Origin: Actinospica acidithermotolerans
Lineage (GTDB): Bacteria > Actinomycetota > Actinomycetes > Streptomycetales > Catenulisporaceae
NCBI RefSeq assembly: GCF_018139625.1
Contig: NZ_JAGSOH010000026.1
Location: 1-64,000 of the forward strand
DNA: 64,000 nucleotides
Direction of reading: 5' to 3'
Below are positions 17,202 through 25,911 of the stretch, piece after piece. Each line of letters begins with the position of its first letter. The stretch's first letter is position 1. The translations under genes were made by a program, and so were the position numbers. Under the pieces are notes generated by a model. The model worked only from the letters and a program-made list of their open reading frames with translations. It was not told the origin of the DNA and did no database searches.

Positions 17202-17399
17202 GATCGGCCTTTCTGCTCTGCTGCTTCGGATTGCTGTGACTTCAGCGAAACATCGCCGTAGCGGCGCGGGCAGGGCCGAGAGTCCCGAGTTGGGCGGGCC
17301 CTCCGAGCGCCGTGAGCGATAGATTCTCGCCGTTTCTGTTTTTCCGTGGATCCGCGGCCGTCTCCTAGTCGTCCGAACGGAATCTGCCAGGGAGCGACG

Positions 17400-19715
17400 G
17401 TGTACGACAGGAGATCAGGCGGCGCGCCTGACGAGACGGCTCTGGTCACGGCGGCTCAGACCGGCGACCAGGCCGCGCTCGACGTGCTGGTGGACCGGTA
17501 CCTTCCACTGCTCTACAACATCGTGGGCCGCGCCCTGGACGGCAGCCACGAGGTCGACGACGTGGTCCAGGAGACCTTGTTCCGCGTCGTGGACCGGCTG
17601 CGGGAACTGCGCGACCCGGCCGCGTTCCGTTCCTGGACGGTGGCGATCGCGATGCGGCTGGTGCGGGACCGCTGGCGGTCGCGGCAGACGGAGTCGGCCG
17701 GCTTCGGGCGCGATCCGGAAGCGCAGCTGGACGCGGCCGATCCCGGCGCCGACTTCGTGGACCTGACGATCCTGCGGCTCGAGCTGACCGACCAGCGCCG
17801 GGAGACCGCGCTGGCCACGCGCTGGCTCGACGAGGAGGATCGCGAACTGCTGGCGCTCTGGTGGCTTGAGGCCGCCGGCGAGCTGACACGCGCGGATCTC
17901 GTCGCGGCACTCGGGTTGAGCCCAGGCCACGCATCGGTGCGCATCCAGCGGATGAAGGCGCAGCTGGAGACGGCCCGGACCGTCGTGCGGGCGATTCAGG
18001 CGGTTCCGCGATGCCAGGAATTCGCCGCCCTGGCACGGCGCTGGGACGGACGGCCGGCCTCCGCGTGGCGCAAGCTGTTCGCACGCCACGTCCGCGACTG
18101 CGTGACGTGCGCCGTGCACCGCGAGGGCCTGGTGCCCGCGGAACGGCTACTGGTCGGTCTCGGCCTCGTGCCGGTTCCCGCTCTGCTCGCGACCCGCATC
18201 GCGGGTGCCGGGCACGTGTCCGCGGCGGCGTCGAAGGCAGCTACGACGGCGACTGCCTCCGGGCCCACTCGGGCCGCCTCGCACGGCCGACGGGCCGTCA
18301 AGCACGGCCGCACCGCGCGCCGCGTCGCGCTGCACGGCTCGGCGAAGGTGGTCGCCGCAGTCCTCGTAGTCGCCACTGTCGCGGTGGGTACGGTCTACGC
18401 GGCCACGCGCCCCGCCCCCACCAACACGTCGGCGACGATCACGGTGGCCACCAAGGCGCCCGCCACCACCGCCAGAGCCAAGCTCACGCCGTCCGCCACG
18501 CACAGCGTCTCACCGAGCCCGGCCAAGGCCTCTTCCGCCTCGCACTCGGCGTCACCGGTCGCGGCGGGCGGCTGTGACCGGACCGCCGGGTCGTCGCCGG
18601 TGGTGCGCACGACGACGGTCGACGTCGGAGTCTCGGTCACGGGCTACGGAAGCCAGGCCGACACCGATCCCCTGCCGATGGCGATCGCGGCGACTCCGTC
18701 GGGCACCTCGTGGCTGGCCTGGCTCGGCACGAACGGCAACGTGTACCTCGGCAAGCTGGACTGCGCCGACCATCTGGTCGGCACGCCCACGAGCTTCACG
18801 GGCATCGATCTGGAGGACGTCGCGGCCGACGCGAACGGCGGCGTGCTGCTGCTGACCCGCAAGGGCAACTGCCACGACGGCCCGCTGTGCGGCGGCACGT
18901 CCAGCCCGTGCAACACCATGTGGATGATCCGCTTCGACAACTCGGGCCGCGAGGTATGGGAGCAGCAGGTCACGAACCTGACCAGCAGCCGCGGCGGCTA
19001 CGACGACGGCGCGAACTTCGTCTGGTGGTACCAGCATCACGGCCGGCTCGCGTACGACGGCACCGACTACGCGGCCTACTTCGCCGACGCCATCACCGTG
19101 CAGAACGGCAGCTGCGTGGACATCCACGAAGGCGACCGTATGCAGGTCGTCGGCCCGACCGGGAACCTGCTGTCAGGACACGGCAGTTTCGGCCTCGGAT
19201 GCAGCCATAGCTGGGACACGCACATCGTCTGGGATCCACGTGCCGGTCGCTTCGTCATGGTCTGCGCCACTGACAACGGCTGCCGGATAGCCCAGCCGGC
19301 CACGTATCAGACTGTGGCGACAGGCACCTGCGACGGCACGTTGTTCGGCGGCGACATCGTCCTGTCCAGCAACGCGGGGTACTGGGTCGGCTGGAGCCAG
19401 GGCGGCCACGCCCGCCTGGACCATTTCAGCACCGGCTCCTCGGACAAGACCGTCGAGACCGCCGCCGACACCAGCCACCCGCACCTGGTCACCTACGGCG
19501 GCCGGATGCTGCTCGCCTGGGGCTCGGGCTCGGAAATCGCCGCGCAGGTCTACAACTCCGGAACCGGCGCCACCGTGGGCGGCCGGTTCACGATCGACGT
19601 CCCCGACAACGCATACATGTCCTTCAAGGCTTACCCGGACGGCAGCGCCGCCTACGCGGCCGCAGGCAGCACCAGCACCTCGATCGTCGTGGCCCGGGTC
19701 ATGCCGATGAGCTGA
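17400..19715 (+). CDS. membrane-fused ECF sigma factor with extracellular sensor domain
   Basis: This 771-residue fusion carries a complete ECF sigma factor: region 2 at about residues 20-95 (DYxV-type HEVDDVVQETLFRVV) and region 4 at about 135-195 (LGLSPGHASVRIQRMKAQLE). A zinc-finger-like anti-sigma segment follows, with H230-x3-C234-x2-C237 (ARHVRDCVTCA) and C205. A His/Ala/Thr-rich linker leads to a single membrane helix (about 316-336), then a Ser/Pro/Thr-rich stalk and a roughly 350-residue extracellular beta-rich domain with Cys pairs and Trp/Gly repeats. The layout implies a sigma factor tethered by its own sensor. Similar fusions (ECF52/53-type) are known in actinobacteria. GTG start with GGGAG 6 nt upstream. 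Confidence 0.85.
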   Translation: MYDRRSGGAPDETALVTAAQTGDQAALDVLVDRYLPLLYNIVGRALDGSHEVDDVVQETLFRVVDRLRELRDPAAFRSWTVAIAMRLVRDRWRSRQTESAGFGRDPEAQLDAADPGADFVDLTILRLELTDQRRETALATRWLDEEDRELLALWWLEAAGELTRADLVAALGLSPGHASVRIQRMKAQLETARTVVRAIQAVPRCQEFAALARRWDGRPASAWRKLFARHVRDCVTCAVHREGLVPAERLLVGLGLVPVPALLATRIAGAGHVSAAASKAATTATASGPTRAASHGRRAVKHGRTARRVALHGSAKVVAAVLVVATVAVGTVYAATRPAPTNTSATITVATKAPATTARAKLTPSATHSVSPSPAKASSASHSASPVAAGGCDRTAGSSPVVRTTTVDVGVSVTGYGSQADTDPLPMAIAATPSGTSWLAWLGTNGNVYLGKLDCADHLVGTPTSFTGIDLEDVAADANGGVLLLTRKGNCHDGPLCGGTSSPCNTMWMIRFDNSGREVWEQQVTNLTSSRGGYDDGANFVWWYQHHGRLAYDGTDYAAYFADAITVQNGSCVDIHEGDRMQVVGPTGNLLSGHGSFGLGCSHSWDTHIVWDPRAGRFVMVCATDNGCRIAQPATYQTVATGTCDGTLFGGDIVLSSNAGYWVGWSQGGHARLDHFSTGSSDKTVETAADTSHPHLVTYGGRMLLAWGSGSEIAAQVYNSGTGATVGGRFTIDVPDNAYMSFKAYPDGSAAYAAAGSTSTSIVVARVMPMS

Positions 19716-19736
19716 GCGCGGCGCTCCCTTGGCGTT

Positions 19737-21586: not shown

Positions 21587-24376
21587 CTACGGCGCCCAGG
21601 CCGGTTGCGGGAGCCAGCTGACGTCGTCGGTCCAGGACGTCGAGCTGTCCCAGGCGGCGCTGCCTCCGTCGCTGGCGACGTAGACGTCGCCGTTGTAGTG
21701 GCGGAGGTAGTCGGCCGGGGTGGCGTTCCAGGAGAGGGACTCGCCTTGGCCGTTCTTGCCCGGGGTGGGGCAGAAGGTCGCGTCCGAGGCGAACTGGCCG
21801 GTGCCGTCGTTCTGCTGCTGGTAGACGGCGCCGCCGGTCTGCCTGAGGTAGCCGTTCGGGTAGTTCTTCGACTCGAACGAGACGCACGAGCTGTTCGCCA
21901 GGCCGGGCTCGACGATCCACGTCGCGTCCTGCTTGTCGGTCGTGGAGCTGGCGACCGTGATGGGGGAGATCACCGCGACGCCGTTCTGGTGGCGGATGAA
22001 GTCTCCCGTGCAGCAGGACGTGGTGGCCCGGAAGGAGACCTCCGTACCGGGTGCCAGCGCGACCGCGCCCAGGTAGCCGAACTGCTGCGAGGCGCCGCCG
22101 GTGCACGCCTCGATGTCGAGCTGCGTGCCGTTGGCCGTGTTGTCGGCCGGGTCGGTGAGGCAGAGGCCCGACTGCGGGTTGATCAGCGTGCCGTCCGGCT
22201 GCTGGACCCACTTCTGGCCGCCGATCCCGTTGCAGGCCCACAGTTCCACGTGCGCGCCCGAGGCGGTGCTGTCGCCGTCGATGTCGAGGCACTTGCCGAG
22301 GTCCTGGAGCGACTCGCTGGCCGAGTCGTAAGTCCAGTGCTGGTCCACGGCGTTCGGCTGGCAGTCCCAGATCTGCAGCTGGGGGCCGATGGCGCCGTAC
22401 AGGTCGTTGCCGGGCACGTCGACGCACTTGCCGCCCGGCGCGCTGATCGGGTGGCCGCTGTTGACGGAGAACAGCTGGTCGGCGGCGCCCGTACACGCCT
22501 CGATGTCGAGGACGGTGCCCGCGCTCGTACTGCCGCCGGGGTCGGTGAGGCAGAGGCCTGACTGCGGGTTGAGCAGCGTGCCGTTGGTCTGCTGTACCCA
22601 CTTCTGGCCGCCGACGCCGTTGCACGTCCAGAGTTCGACCTTCGTACCGGACGCGGTGACGTTGCCGTCGATGTCGAGGCACATGTTCAGCGCCGTGATC
22701 GATTCGTCGCCGTTCTGCCACCAGTACTGGTCGGCGTCCTCGCGGGCGCAGGAGGCGAGATCGACGGCCGTGCCGGCCACGGCTGCCGCCCCCGCAGTGC
22801 TCCCGACGCAGTCGCCCGCGGGCGCGGAGATCGTCTGCCCCTGGATCAGCCAGCCCGGGGAGATGAGGAACTGCTGGTCAGCGGCTGCCGTGCAGGCTTC
22901 GATATCAAGCACCGTGCCGTTGGCGGTGCTGCCGTTCGGACTGGTCAGGCAGAGGCCTGATTGCGGATTGAGCAGGGTGCCGTTCGACTGCGGCACCCAT
23001 TGCTGGCCGCCGACGCCGTTGCAGTCCCAGAGCTCTACCTTGGTGCCGGACGCGGTGCCGTCGCCGTCGATGTCCAGACAGCGTCCCATGGTGACGAGTT
23101 CCTCGGGATACTGCCACGAGGGCGCCGCCGTGTTGGACGGCAGTCCCTGGTCGGGGACGGTCCGCAGGTATTGCCAGTCCTGGTCGACGGCGTCGTGCTG
23201 GCAGCTCCAGATGTCGACGGCGGTGCCGTCGCCGCCGTTGTCGTTCCCGCTCACGTCCAGGCACGATCCGCCCGGACCGGTCACCGGCACGCCGGGGCCG
23301 CCGCCGCTGGTGCCCGCATAGGAGGCGGCGGCGATGTTCGACTGGACGGAGGCGATCGTGCTGTCCGAGGCGTAGCCGGAGACGATGGCGCCCTCGAAGA
23401 ACGCGCCGGGGGCCATGTCGCTCTGGTCGCCGCCCACGCCGAGCCCGATGCCGCCCTCCTGGTGCATCGGCGAGTAGCCGCTCGGAAGGGCGCCGGAATA
23501 GAGCGATGTCAGCGATGGCCCGGTGGCATCACCGCCATCCAAGGCGAATCGGCTTTGGCCGTCGTTGCGCAGCACGGCCGTGATGAACTTCGAGTTCTCG
23601 CTGACGTTGGACGGGTTGGCGCTCGACCCGTTGCCCATGTAGACGCCGTTCTCCATGTCCGCCTGGACCCACGGGCCCTTCCCGGTGCACGGCGAGACGC
23701 CGCACCACGTGGAGATGATCAGCGCGTCCATGTGCCCGGCGCCGGTGTCGGTCGCGCTGGTCTCCATGTTGCCGAAGTCGAAGCAGCAGTGGTCGGTGGC
23801 GTCGGTGCCGCTCGCGACCTCGTACATCGACTCGGGCTGGCCGTTGACCGCCATCCCGGGCGCCGGCGAGTTCGCCGTGGACGGGATGTAGCGGTAGCCG
23901 ACCTTCGCGGTGATCCGCACGCCGTACGCCTTGTGCCCGTTCACGGTCACCGGCAGGGCGTCCGCGCGGGCCGGGATGTTGGCGGAGCCCGAACTACCGG
24001 CCGGGCCCAGACCCAGATCGCTGTGACGGCCCGACTGGTCGTAGATCTTGGTGATCGTGCAGACCGTGTTCGCGCAGAACGAGTCCTGGGCGGCCGCGTC
24101 GGCGTAGCCGCCGGTGCCGAGCAGCCCGATGTCGGTGGTGGTCCCGTCGGACTGCCGGGTGACCTGGTAGAGCGGCCCGCTGTAGCCGCTGGAGAGCGCG
24201 CGGACCGTGCTGTAGGCGGCCACGCAGTTCTGACCGCCGGAGGCGAACACGTCGCACGGCAGCGTCGAGGTGCTCGCGCGCGCGGGCGGCGCGGCGGCTT
24301 GGGTGAGCATCGTGACCGCGAGGAGGACGACGCACACCAAGGACCACGTCTTCGTGGCGGCGGTGCGCAGCTTCAT
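21587..24376 (-). CDS. secreted GH54 alpha-L-arabinofuranosidase with three CBM13 and a CBM42
   Basis: This 929-residue modular enzyme releases arabinofuranose from arabinan or arabinoxylan outside the cell. After a Sec signal (about 1-35) comes a GH54 catalytic domain starting CDVFASGGQNCVAAYSTVRALSSGYSGPLYQV. It includes GPWVQADMENGVYMG, whose Glu aligns with the family nucleophile, and GGIGLGVGGDQSD, whose Asp aligns with the acid/base. Three tandem ricin-type CBM13 blocks (repeating CLDIDGDxTASGTKVELW, QSGLCLT and GTVLDIEACT) follow from about residue 350 to 780. A terminal CBM42 (AbfB) domain ends the protein. ATG 24376 has GGAGAG upstream; longer frames run into the control region and the LacI gene. 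It is probably repressed by that LacI. Confidence 0.93.
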   Translation of the reverse strand: MKLRTAATKTWSLVCVVLLAVTMLTQAAAPPARASTSTLPCDVFASGGQNCVAAYSTVRALSSGYSGPLYQVTRQSDGTTTDIGLLGTGGYADAAAQDSFCANTVCTITKIYDQSGRHSDLGLGPAGSSGSANIPARADALPVTVNGHKAYGVRITAKVGYRYIPSTANSPAPGMAVNGQPESMYEVASGTDATDHCCFDFGNMETSATDTGAGHMDALIISTWCGVSPCTGKGPWVQADMENGVYMGNGSSANPSNVSENSKFITAVLRNDGQSRFALDGGDATGPSLTSLYSGALPSGYSPMHQEGGIGLGVGGDQSDMAPGAFFEGAIVSGYASDSTIASVQSNIAAASYAGTSGGGPGVPVTGPGGSCLDVSGNDNGGDGTAVDIWSCQHDAVDQDWQYLRTVPDQGLPSNTAAPSWQYPEELVTMGRCLDIDGDGTASGTKVELWDCNGVGGQQWVPQSNGTLLNPQSGLCLTSPNGSTANGTVLDIEACTAAADQQFLISPGWLIQGQTISAPAGDCVGSTAGAAAVAGTAVDLASCAREDADQYWWQNGDESITALNMCLDIDGNVTASGTKVELWTCNGVGGQKWVQQTNGTLLNPQSGLCLTDPGGSTSAGTVLDIEACTGAADQLFSVNSGHPISAPGGKCVDVPGNDLYGAIGPQLQIWDCQPNAVDQHWTYDSASESLQDLGKCLDIDGDSTASGAHVELWACNGIGGQKWVQQPDGTLINPQSGLCLTDPADNTANGTQLDIEACTGGASQQFGYLGAVALAPGTEVSFRATTSCCTGDFIRHQNGVAVISPITVASSTTDKQDATWIVEPGLANSSCVSFESKNYPNGYLRQTGGAVYQQQNDGTGQFASDATFCPTPGKNGQGESLSWNATPADYLRHYNGDVYVASDGGSAAWDSSTSWTDDVSWLPQPAWAP

Positions 24377-24431
24377 GGATCTCTCCGATCGTGAGAGCTG
24401 TACGTCGATGGGCGGGTATGTCCACCGAACC

Positions 24432-24449
24432 TGCTGAATCGATTGAGCA
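24432..24449. promoter_or_regulatory. LacI-type operator O1
   Basis: TGCTGAATCGATTGAGCA is an 18-bp near-palindrome with one mismatched pair, 56 nt upstream of the GH54 start. It matches sites at 24668 and 24732 in sequence and length, so it is likely bound by the adjacent LacI protein to repress the arabinofuranosidase gene. Confidence 0.7.
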
Positions 24450-24667
24450 GACCTGTTCAGCGGGGCTGAGCTGCGGAGCGGGGAGTAGGGGTGGATCCGG
24501 CTGCTCCGGCCGCGCGCTGTGCGGCGGCGGAATCGATGCGGGCCGGTGGCGATGCAGACCATAGGCTCGCTCCAGGGCCCGGTCAAGGGAACCGGGGCGA
24601 TTCGGTCCCGCGCGCGGCAGGAGAAGCCGGGGTCTTGACATCCACCGGCGAGAGCCCCTAGCTTCCG

Positions 24668-24685
24668 TGCTGAAGCGTTAGAGCA
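24668..24685. promoter_or_regulatory. LacI-type operator O2 (weaker)
   Basis: TGCTGAAGCGTTAGAGCA shares the outer TGCT...AGCA arms and central CG of O1 and O3 but is less symmetric. Its centre is 64 bp from that of O3, so a looping or cooperative role is possible. Confidence 0.55.
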
Positions 24686-24731
24686 GCCGAATCCCCCCGA
24701 TCGATTTTCGCTGCGAACGGCTTTGCCAGAG

Positions 24732-24749
24732 TGCTCAAACGATTGAGCA
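24732..24749. promoter_or_regulatory. LacI-type operator O3
   Basis: TGCTCAAACGATTGAGCA has 7-bp perfect arms around ACGA, 33 nt before the LacI start codon. The position fits autorepression. Confidence 0.72.
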
Positions 24750-24781
24750 ACCGAGATCGACGGCCACCGAAGGAAGCGCCG

Positions 24782-25864
24782 ATGTCTGAGTCCGAGAACG
24801 CGACGGCCCCGAGCCCGAAGCCGCAGTCGGCCCGCGGCCGCGGTCCCGCGACGCTGCGCAGCATCGCCTCGGTGGTCGGCGTCTCGCCGAGCGCGGTGTC
24901 GATGGCCCTCGCGGACCACCCGCGGATCGGCCGGGAGACGAAGGAGGCGGTGCGCGCGGCGGCCCGCGACCTGGGGTACGTCGCGAACTCGGCCGGCCGG
25001 GCGCTGCGCGCCGGGCGCTCGACCTCGATCGCGGTCGTGGTCCCGAACACCGCGCAGCACGTGTTCGGCCACCCCTACTTCATGCACCTGCTGGTCGGGG
25101 TGAACGAGGCGGCCAACGCGCAGGACACCGCGGTGCTGATCTCCACCAACCCCGCCACCGACCACGATCCGGCGGCCTACGACCGGATCCTGCGCTCGCA
25201 GGCGGCGGCCGGGGCGATCATCGCGTCGGCCGCGATCAACGATCCGAACGTCAGCCGCATGGTCGACGGCGGGCTGCCGGTGGTGCTGATCGGCCGCTAC
25301 CCGCACCTGCCGCACGCGGTGTCGGTCGGCATGGACGACGTCGCCGGCGCGGCCGCGGCCACCCGGCATCTGATCGCCGAGCACGGGCTGCGCCGGATCG
25401 GGCACATCAGCGGCCCGCTCGAGCACCAGACCGCGCTGGATCGCTACCAGGGCTTCCGCGATGCCATCGCCGAGAGCCCCGAACCGTGCGTGCAGAGCCT
25501 CGCGGTCGGCGACTTCAGCGAGGAGGCCGGGCGCGCCTGCGCCGCGCAGCTGCTCGACGGCATGCCCGGACTCCAGGCGATCTTCGCCGCGAACGACGAG
25601 ATGGCCTACGGCGCGCTGCTGGAACTGCGCTCGCGCGGGCTGCGCGTCCCGCAGGACGTCGCCCTGGTCGGCTATGACGACTTCGGCGTCTCCCGGCTGA
25701 CCACCCCGGCGATCACCACGGTCCGGGTGCCCGCCGAGGAGCTCGGCCGCCGCGCGGCGCGGCGGCTGTTCGACCTGATCGACGGCGCCGCCGAGCCGGT
25801 CACGCACGAGAACGTGCCGATCGAGCTCGTCGCCCGCGAATCCTGCGGCTGCCCGCCCGACTGA
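24782..25864 (+). CDS. LacI-family transcriptional regulator of arabinan utilisation
   Basis: This 360-residue regulator has an N-terminal HTH and hinge (TLRSIASVVGVSPSAVSMALADHPRIGRETKEAVRAAARDLGYVANSAGRALRAG) and a periplasmic-binding-protein-like effector domain ending VGYDDFGVSRLTTPAITTVRVP. A long basic/Pro-rich tail of about 20 residues precedes the HTH. ATG 24782 follows AAGGAAG. It is divergent from the GH54 gene and upstream of the ABC importer and GH51 genes. The three TGCT-AGCA palindromes nearby are its probable operators and arabinose or an arabino-oligosaccharide its likely effector (inference). Confidence 0.93.
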   Translation: MSESENATAPSPKPQSARGRGPATLRSIASVVGVSPSAVSMALADHPRIGRETKEAVRAAARDLGYVANSAGRALRAGRSTSIAVVVPNTAQHVFGHPYFMHLLVGVNEAANAQDTAVLISTNPATDHDPAAYDRILRSQAAAGAIIASAAINDPNVSRMVDGGLPVVLIGRYPHLPHAVSVGMDDVAGAAAATRHLIAEHGLRRIGHISGPLEHQTALDRYQGFRDAIAESPEPCVQSLAVGDFSEEAGRACAAQLLDGMPGLQAIFAANDEMAYGALLELRSRGLRVPQDVALVGYDDFGVSRLTTPAITTVRVPAEELGRRAARRLFDLIDGAAEPVTHENVPIELVARESCGCPPD

Positions 25865-25911
25865 GCCCGGGCACGAGCCCGGCCGTCTGAGCCCGGGCAC
25901 GAGCCCGGGCT
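25862..25911 (+). terminator. duplicated hairpin after the LacI gene
   Basis: The stop codon region TGAGCCCGGGCACGAGCCCGG is duplicated with a 26-bp period. The second copy forms a perfect stem (AGCCCGGGC, ACGA loop, GCCCGGGCT) at 25890-25911. It separates the LacI gene from the importer operon and probably ends the regulator transcript. Confidence 0.7.

What the first reader, a model, noticed from the sequence alone, without database searches (positions are those of the whole stretch)
17400..19715. One-protein sigma/anti-sigma/sensor fusion
A full ECF sigma factor is continuous with an HxxxCxxC zinc-finger-like segment, one membrane helix and a roughly 350-residue extracellular domain. Such a design needs proteolytic release or works as a membrane-tethered sigma factor. 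ECF52/53-type fusions are known, but the extracellular domain here is not one I can name.
Basis: partly seen in the sequence, partly recalled or inferred. Interest (0 to 1): 0.7.

Follow-up and report, generated by a model that had tools for sequence, protein, structure and literature searches.

The report
Membrane-tethered sigma factor with propeller sensor
A single bacterial gene joins an RNA-polymerase sigma factor, its zinc-finger inhibitor, one membrane helix and an outside beta-propeller that many other bacteria display on their surface without a sigma factor, so it is probably a one-protein outside-to-gene switch whose own on-site in DNA could be located.

Summary
Window 17400-19715 encodes one intact 771-residue protein: ECF sigma factor, zinc-anti-sigma-type segment (C205-x24-H230-x3-C234-x2-C237), one membrane helix, Ser/Thr-rich linker and a 379-residue ectodomain. 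The fusion is no frameshift: a same-genus orthologue is fused likewise, with dN/dS at or below 0.2 in every folded part.

The ectodomain matches no Pfam or NCBIfam family. It is predicted to be a beta-propeller and belongs to an unnamed surface-protein family, 50-84% identical in Actinobacteria and Myxococcota, where it occurs without sigma as lipoproteins, signal-anchored proteins or lectin/CBM fusions.

The sigma-zinc-membrane module belongs to a family (72 members collected; all four zinc ligands invariant) whose ectodomains vary: CAP, GH128-like, GH99-like, AbfB, ricin-B, beta-helix, propeller. It is not ECF52; architecture suggests ECF53, which I could not test.

New: a self-promoter, TGTTAT-N17/18-GTCTCC (TGTTTT here, 17337-17365), precedes 40 of 72 members. 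Across ten related genomes this site occurs 16 times (0 in the reversed control): nine before family genes, seven before secreted alginate-lyase-like or repeat-rich proteins.

Most likely: an auto-inhibited sigma factor released by intramembrane proteolysis when the propeller binds an extracellular, probably polysaccharide, ligand. Release and ligand are inferred.

The parts
17337..17365 (+). inferred self-promoter: -35 TGTTTT (17337-17342), 17-nt spacer, -10 GTCTCC (17360-17365)
   Evidence: family motif TGTTAT/TGTTTT/TGTGAC-N17/18-GTCTCC in 40 of 72 upstream regions (looser form; strict form 32, 0.1 expected); conserved in G002 although the upstream genes differ
17389..17394 (+). ribosome-binding site AGGGAG, five bases before GTG 17400
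   Evidence: sequence
17400..19715 (+). gene of the 771-aa sigma-ZAS-TM-propeller protein
17487..17687 (+). sigma region 2 (aa 30-96)
   Evidence: PF04542 E 1.7e-13
17808..17999 (+). sigma region 4, promoter -35 reading domain (about aa 137-200)
   Evidence: TIGR02937 covers 26-191; helices 132-142, 145-158, 164-171, 175-200 in the model
18012..18110 (+). zinc anti-sigma (ZAS)-like segment, ligands C205, H230, C234, C237
   Evidence: all four invariant in 72/72 family members, 24 or 29 residues between C and H; helices with pLDDT 87-96
18348..18404 (+). transmembrane helix aa 317-335, basic residues on the N-terminal (cytoplasmic) side
18405..18575 (+). Ser/Thr/Ala/Pro-rich extracellular linker aa 336-392
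   Evidence: sequence; among the fastest-evolving parts, dN/dS 0.43
18576..19712 (+). extracellular beta-propeller, aa 393-771
   Evidence: AF2 pTM 0.80, all-beta; Foldseek/VIA leading hits are propellers; conserved D-x-H-x2-D ... G-C-x-H site

Best explanation
The protein is a membrane-tethered, auto-inhibited ECF sigma factor. The N-terminal sigma domain stays in the cytoplasm and is held inactive by the zinc anti-sigma-like segment fused directly behind region 4. A single membrane helix carries a surface-exposed beta-propeller as the sensor. When the propeller binds its extracellular ligand, most likely a polysaccharide or other wall, plant or fungal glycan, the chain is cut by regulated intramembrane proteolysis. 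The freed sigma-ZAS piece is trimmed or rearranged and directs RNA polymerase to its own promoter (TGTTTT-N17-GTCTCC, window 17337-17365) and a small set of secreted proteins. Shown: architecture, conservation, predicted fold, family, promoter motif. Inferred: auto-inhibition, proteolysis, ligand class, regulon of this particular member.
For: Full ECF sigma. Complete CHCC zinc quartet invariant in 72/72 family members. AF2 model of sigma+ZAS: its best Foldseek matches are sigma chains from anti-sigma complexes, led by SigW bound to the zinc anti-sigma RsiW (rmsd 5.9-6.2 A) with CnrH-CnrY at 5.7 A, against about 25 A for RNAP-bound ECF sigmas. A TM candidate follows the zinc segment in the members examined, usually with basic residues before it. 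M50 (site-2-protease-type) peptidases in the genome. Family-wide self-promoter; in ten related genomes 16 exact sites, reversed control 0: nine precede family genes, three precede secreted alginate-lyase-family proteins, four precede secreted proteins of which two tested have PATR repeats. Sister modules carry GH128-like, GH99-like, AbfB, ricin-B and beta-helix ectodomains. Some sigma-free homologues of the propeller are joined to ricin-B lectin or CBM2. Purifying selection on every folded part.
Against: No member was tested experimentally here. The Pfam zinc-finger anti-sigma model (PF13490) matches none of the 72, so ZAS rests on ligand spacing, position and helices. Free ECF sigmas can also be compact, and the model's pTM is only 0.66. 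In the window's own genome the exact promoter pattern gives hardly more than the gene itself (4 sites against 2 in the reversed control), so no further target of this member is shown. CAP, the commonest sister ectodomain, is not a known glycan enzyme. No adjacent conserved gene hints at the ligand.
Confidence: 0.6

Rival explanations
1. Membrane-tethered sigma factor that works without cleavage: ligand binding outside changes the conformation of the chain, the ZAS lets go, and the holoenzyme forms at the membrane next to target DNA.
For: Nothing in the sequence demands cleavage; the cytoplasmic stretch between ZAS and TM is about 80 residues, much of it poorly conserved and probably flexible (dN/dS 0.43 over 44 codons), enough to reach RNA polymerase.
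Against: IutY, the one characterised protein of like architecture, is activated by cleavage (PMC8999054); M50 proteases are present.
Confidence: 0.17
2. The main input is cytoplasmic: the CHCC zinc site is a redox or zinc switch like RsrA, and the ectodomain mainly anchors or performs a surface task.
For: Cys as first ligand and the spacing C-x24-H-x3-C-x2-C recall thiol-reactive ZAS proteins such as RsrA (own knowledge; RsrA is the subject of PMC4960319, listed); the four ligands are among the few strictly invariant residues of the module.
Against: Ectodomains differ widely between members while the module stays, which fits input diversity on the outside; a redox switch would not need them.
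Confidence: 0.13
3. The ectodomain is primarily a surface enzyme or adhesin and the sigma part reports on its export or loss (cargo sensing).
For: Sigma-free homologues of the same propeller are common surface proteins; D182, H184, D187, C209, H211 and D233 are invariant from Actinobacteria to Myxococcota and Chloroflexota, as expected of a catalytic or metal site; GH145/PL27-type enzymes are among the fold matches.
Against: Fold matches alone show no activity, and no catalytic residues could be transferred at about 10% identity.
Confidence: 0.15
4. Assembly artefact or fusion of two neighbouring genes.
For: None found; the genome is in 422 contigs.
Against: Same fusion in an independent genome assembled as one contig and same module order in a family of 72; selection across the junction.
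Confidence: 0.01

Closest known systems
ECF53 group (Actinobacteria), described in PMC8999054 and PMC10766802
   Same: ECF sigma with C-terminal zinc-finger segment, TM helix and long extension; some members predicted to carry glycosyl hydrolase or carbohydrate-binding domains, as sister genes here do
   Different: group HMM or reference protein WP_030276194.1 was not available, so membership is untested; no propeller ectodomain is mentioned in the texts I could read
ECF52, SCO4117 of Streptomyces coelicolor (PMC5826349)
   Same: order sigma - zinc finger - TM - linker - sensor; autoregulation proposed; cleavage proposed
   Different: sigma domain only about 22% identical (E 0.02 at best), sensor is NPCBM, reported promoter motif CSGYN-17bp-SRHA differs from TGTTAT-N17/18-GTCTCC
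IutY (ECF243) of Pseudomonas putida
   Same: sigma and membrane anti-sigma in one chain; cleavage by Prc and RseP activates it (PMC8999054): same expected working
   Different: siderophore receptor input; Gram-negative; no propeller
RsgI/SigI polysaccharide sensors of Clostridium thermocellum (PMC12203970)
   Same: membrane anti-sigma that senses extracellular substrates, is cut by RseP, and controls cellulosome genes
   Different: two proteins, different sigma and anti-sigma families
SigW-RsiW (PDB 5wuq)
   Same: zinc anti-sigma bound to an ECF sigma; closest solved chain to the AF2 model
   Different: separate proteins
ECF57 with WD40-like extensions (PMC8999054)
   Same: sigma plus propeller-type repeats
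   Different: WD40-like repeats there are proposed to work by protein interaction; here the propeller lies outside, behind ZAS and TM, and is not WD40 by Pfam

Membership tests
ECF sigma factor | sigma regions 2 and 4 of the ECF type | tested here: met
   TIGR02937 62.8 bits (cut-off 42.9) residues 26-191; PF04542 50.6 bits; profile hits to SigE, AlgU, CnrH, SigW chains
Zinc anti-sigma (ZAS) domain | C/H - about 25 residues - H-x3-C-x2-C in a helical domain next to the sigma factor | tested here: met
   C205-x24-H230-x3-C234-x2-C237, invariant in 72/72, helical with high pLDDT
Zinc anti-sigma (ZAS) domain | match to Pfam zf-HC2 PF13490 | tested here: not met
   none of 72 members matches at E 0.01
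Zinc anti-sigma (ZAS) domain | zinc binding and inhibition of sigma | not testable with these tools
   needs purified protein
ECF52 | sigma domain of the SCO4117 group | tested here: not met
   SCO4117-like proteins from Streptomyces: at best E 0.02, about 22% identity in the sigma region
ECF52 | carbohydrate-binding NPCBM domain after a Pro-rich linker | tested here: not met
   no NPCBM match in the window's genome; ectodomain is a predicted propeller
ECF53 | C-terminal zinc finger, TM and long extension, Actinobacteria | tested here: met
   sister members with GH128-like and GH99-like domains
ECF53 | assignment by the group's HMM or tree with the reference protein | not testable with these tools
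   the classification papers were not held and no group HMM or reference sequence was on hand
beta-propeller (seven-bladed) | all-beta toroid matching solved propellers over the whole domain | tested here: met
   VIA Z up to 24.5 over about 290-320 residues against YncE, PLL lectins, GH145/PL27, CylK; blade number seven is taken from the matches, not counted in coordinates
GH145/PL27 glycan enzymes | catalytic residues and glycan cleavage | tested here: inconclusive
   fold match only, 7-9% identity
PLL lectins | repeated sugar-binding sites | tested here: inconclusive
   fold match only, about 10% identity

The most novel reading that the evidence does not exclude
A modular family of one-protein signal transducers in which one sigma-ZAS-membrane cassette is fitted with different extracellular glycan-facing domains, here with an unannotated propeller closely related to sigma-free surface proteins, and in which members read a common promoter code (TGTTAT-N17/18-GTCTCC and close variants) to switch on themselves and secreted polysaccharide-acting proteins.
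Probability: 0.4. Interest if true: 0.68.

Novelty: new variant of a known kind. Interest (0 to 1): 0.55.

Why it matters
One-protein sigma/anti-sigma/sensor fusions are known from bioinformatics, but according to PMC8999054 only IutY has its proteolytic activation characterised, and for the actinobacterial ECF52/53 domains PMC10766802 notes that experimental validation is missing. This work gives a concrete promoter sequence for the family, candidate target genes (secreted alginate-lyase-family and repeat proteins) and a set of interchangeable ectodomains, so ligand, cleavage and promoter can be tested with a simple reporter. It also defines a widespread surface propeller family with no Pfam or NCBIfam model. 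If domain exchange works naturally, the cassette is a ready scaffold for biosensors of extracellular glycans.

Tried and rejected
Frameshift/assembly artefact: rejected (G002, family of 72, dN/dS). ECF52 membership: rejected by comparison with SCO4117-like proteins. Sequence search of solved structures with the ectodomain profile gave nothing meaningful (best E 0.23); Pfam and NCBIfam on ten ectodomains gave only noise. Viral, phage and plasmid collections were not searched, since all leads were cellular. Gene neighbourhood: nothing but the promoter-plus-gene block 17316-19716 is conserved with G002, so neighbours give no clue. ECF sigma genes near sigma-free propellers: 12 ORFs in 66 loci, scattered, only about twice what density alone would give by my rough estimate, not followed. 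Regulon search with TGTKWY and TGTTTT versions in the window's genome, G001/G002 and G011: few sites, near the reversed control, no convincing target besides the gene itself. Tree test that all four fused propellers form one clade: not decided (AU p 0.12), because the sister-genus ectodomains L103/L115 are on a saturated branch. The ECF classification papers were not held.

Full report
Check of the observation. Window 17400-19715 (+) is one open frame of 771 codons. Pfam and NCBIfam see a complete ECF sigma factor (PF04542, residues 30-96; TIGR02937, residues 26-191, above its cut-off). Behind it lie an H-x3-C-x2-C motif, a hydrophobic segment (317-335) with basic residues on its N-terminal side, a Ser/Thr/Ala/Pro-rich linker and a 379-residue domain without a family. 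A same-genus genome, G002, assembled as one contig, has the same fused protein, 84-87% identical. Nei-Gojobori dN/dS between the two is 0.15 and 0.06 in sigma regions 2 and 4, 0.12 in the zinc segment, 0.15 in the membrane helix and 0.20 in the ectodomain. Between the two genomes only the block 17316-19716 is conserved; the flanks differ. A frameshift artefact is therefore excluded.

The cytoplasmic module is a family. Searching the first 337 residues gave matches in 14 of 14 genomes of the same taxonomic family (up to eight per genome) and in 40 of 395 genomes sampled from the class. I extracted 72 full-length members, the window's own included. Pfam's PF13490 does not recognise it, so the assignment rests on the ligands, the place and the predicted helices. 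An AlphaFold2 model of residues 1-265 from 53 sequences (pLDDT 81.7, pTM 0.66) has region 4 running into well-predicted zinc-segment helices. Foldseek's closest solved chains are sigma factors caught with their anti-sigma factors, first SigW with the zinc anti-sigma RsiW; SigW and CnrH superpose at 5.7-6.2 A, whereas RNA-polymerase-bound ECF sigmas lie at about 25 A. This is consistent with an auto-inhibited chain but does not prove it, since free sigma factors can be compact too.

Ectodomains vary. Of the 72, 41 carry a CAP domain, 11 Glyco_hydro_cc (GH128-type), 7 an unrecognised domain, 4 Glyco_hydro_99, 4 the propeller, 2 AbfB, 2 a beta-helix, 1 ricin-B. On the module tree these labels need 11 changes (29.5 when shuffled; seven is the least possible), so ectodomains were exchanged several times but mostly stay within clades. 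The four propeller members form one group (SH-aLRT 98; quick tree). The window's genome has two further members, with GH128-type and CAP ectodomains.

The ectodomain. AlphaFold2 gives an all-beta model (pTM 0.80, mean pLDDT 72.9). The leading matches in the PDB are beta-propellers: YncE, PLL lectins, the CylK propeller, and GH145/PL27 glycan enzymes, at about 10% identity, so they show fold, not function. A scan of 84,980 species genomes found 66 loci, nearly all 50-84% identical, in a Streptomyces, Micromonosporaceae, Frankiaceae, Kineosporia, Glycomyces, Myxococcota and, more remotely, Chloroflexota. Where the N-terminus can be read none is fused to a sigma factor: they are lipoproteins, signal-anchored single-pass proteins with the same kind of linker, or fusions to ricin-B lectin (L035, L044) or CBM2 (L047). 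The window's propeller is closest, after G002, to a sigma-free ricin-B-propeller protein of Streptomyces phyllanthi (84%; support 100/99) and nests among actinobacterial sigma-free forms (99/97). The fused propellers of the sister genus, whose sigma modules are 66-67% identical, match it at only 28%. A replacement of the ectodomain by a surface-protein domain is the simplest reading, but the test is undecided (AU p 0.12). Residues D182, H184, D187, C209, H211, C230 and D233 of the domain are invariant in all 29 aligned sequences, including the remote ones, which points to a binding or active site.

A promoter for the family. Upstream regions share TGTTAT-N17/18-GTCTCC, or TGTGAC and TGTTTT variants, mostly 30-100 bases before the start: 32 of 72 with a strict pattern (mean 0.1, at most 2, in 200 Markov shuffles; 1 on the reverse strand), 40 of 72 with a slightly looser one. 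Related members share ancestry, so these are not 40 independent events; but the motif recurs in CAP, GH128, propeller, beta-helix and unrecognised-domain members. All four propeller members have TGTTTT. In the window it lies at 17337-17365, and it is kept in G002. Searching TGTTAT-N17/18-GTCTCC in ten related genomes gave 16 sites and none for the reversed pattern. Nine precede family members. The other seven precede secreted proteins: three Tat-type alginate-lyase-family proteins (PF05426 in the two scanned), at least one ending in an LAxTG-like wall-anchoring signal, and four related proteins with Sec-type signals, PATR repeats in the two scanned. This links the family to secreted, probably glycan-directed, proteins. 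For the window's own member no target besides itself was found.

Mechanism. The most likely working is outside-in: ligand on the propeller, cleavage by regulated intramembrane proteolysis (M50 proteases exist in the genome), release of the sigma part, transcription of its own gene and of secreted proteins. IutY of Pseudomonas putida is the proven precedent for cleavage of such a fusion (PMC8999054), and RsgI of Clostridium thermocellum for substrate sensing through a membrane anti-sigma cleaved by RseP (PMC12203970, abstract). That ligand binding, cleavage and inhibition occur here is inference.

Comparison with what is known. ECF52 is excluded by sigma sequence. ECF53 is the likely home by architecture (PMC8999054, PMC10766802), untested. 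What is new to me is the propeller sensor, the wide sigma-free surface family behind it, the invariant CHCC site across diverse ectodomains, and the family promoter with secreted targets. I found no paper describing these, within an open-access library only, and the classification papers that define ECF53 could not be read, so parts may be recorded there.

Noticed in passing
L227, L231, L232, L241 (streptomycete genomes G014, G037, G021, G047): The family promoter TGTTAT-N17/18-GTCTCC also stands before related secreted proteins in four genomes; the two scanned have PATR repeats.
   Followed up: partly
L235, L236, L237 (G047, G017, G042): The same promoter stands before Tat-signal alginate-lyase-family proteins; L235 ends in an LAATG-like sortase signal, a wall-anchored polysaccharide lyase candidate.
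   Followed up: partly
L124, L104, L109, L110, L177, L172, L158: Seven sigma-ZAS-TM fusions carry a further ectodomain that no Pfam model recognises, ending in a VRDTGxDxAPVPQYLTR-like motif.
   Followed up: no
L161, L106 and L162 (G008 contig 47): Four module copies in two neighbouring opposite-strand pairs; one of each pair ends soon after the zinc segment and lacks TM and ectodomain, perhaps soluble or decayed forms.
   Followed up: no
L168 (G011:C223) and L169 (G002:C1:2862893): Module copies interrupted by stop codons near the zinc segment or linker: probably decaying paralogues.
   Followed up: no
window 21587-25900 (-): Large frame with arabinofuranosidase B (GH54) catalytic domain, ricin-B domains and AbfB domain, about 2 kb from the sigma gene but not conserved beside it in G002.
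   Followed up: partly
L074, L077, L089-L092: Myxococcota MAG loci encode the same propeller at 50-63% identity behind Asp/Ser- or Gly/Ala-rich linkers; where the start is readable most look like lipoproteins, so the domain crosses phyla.
   Followed up: partly
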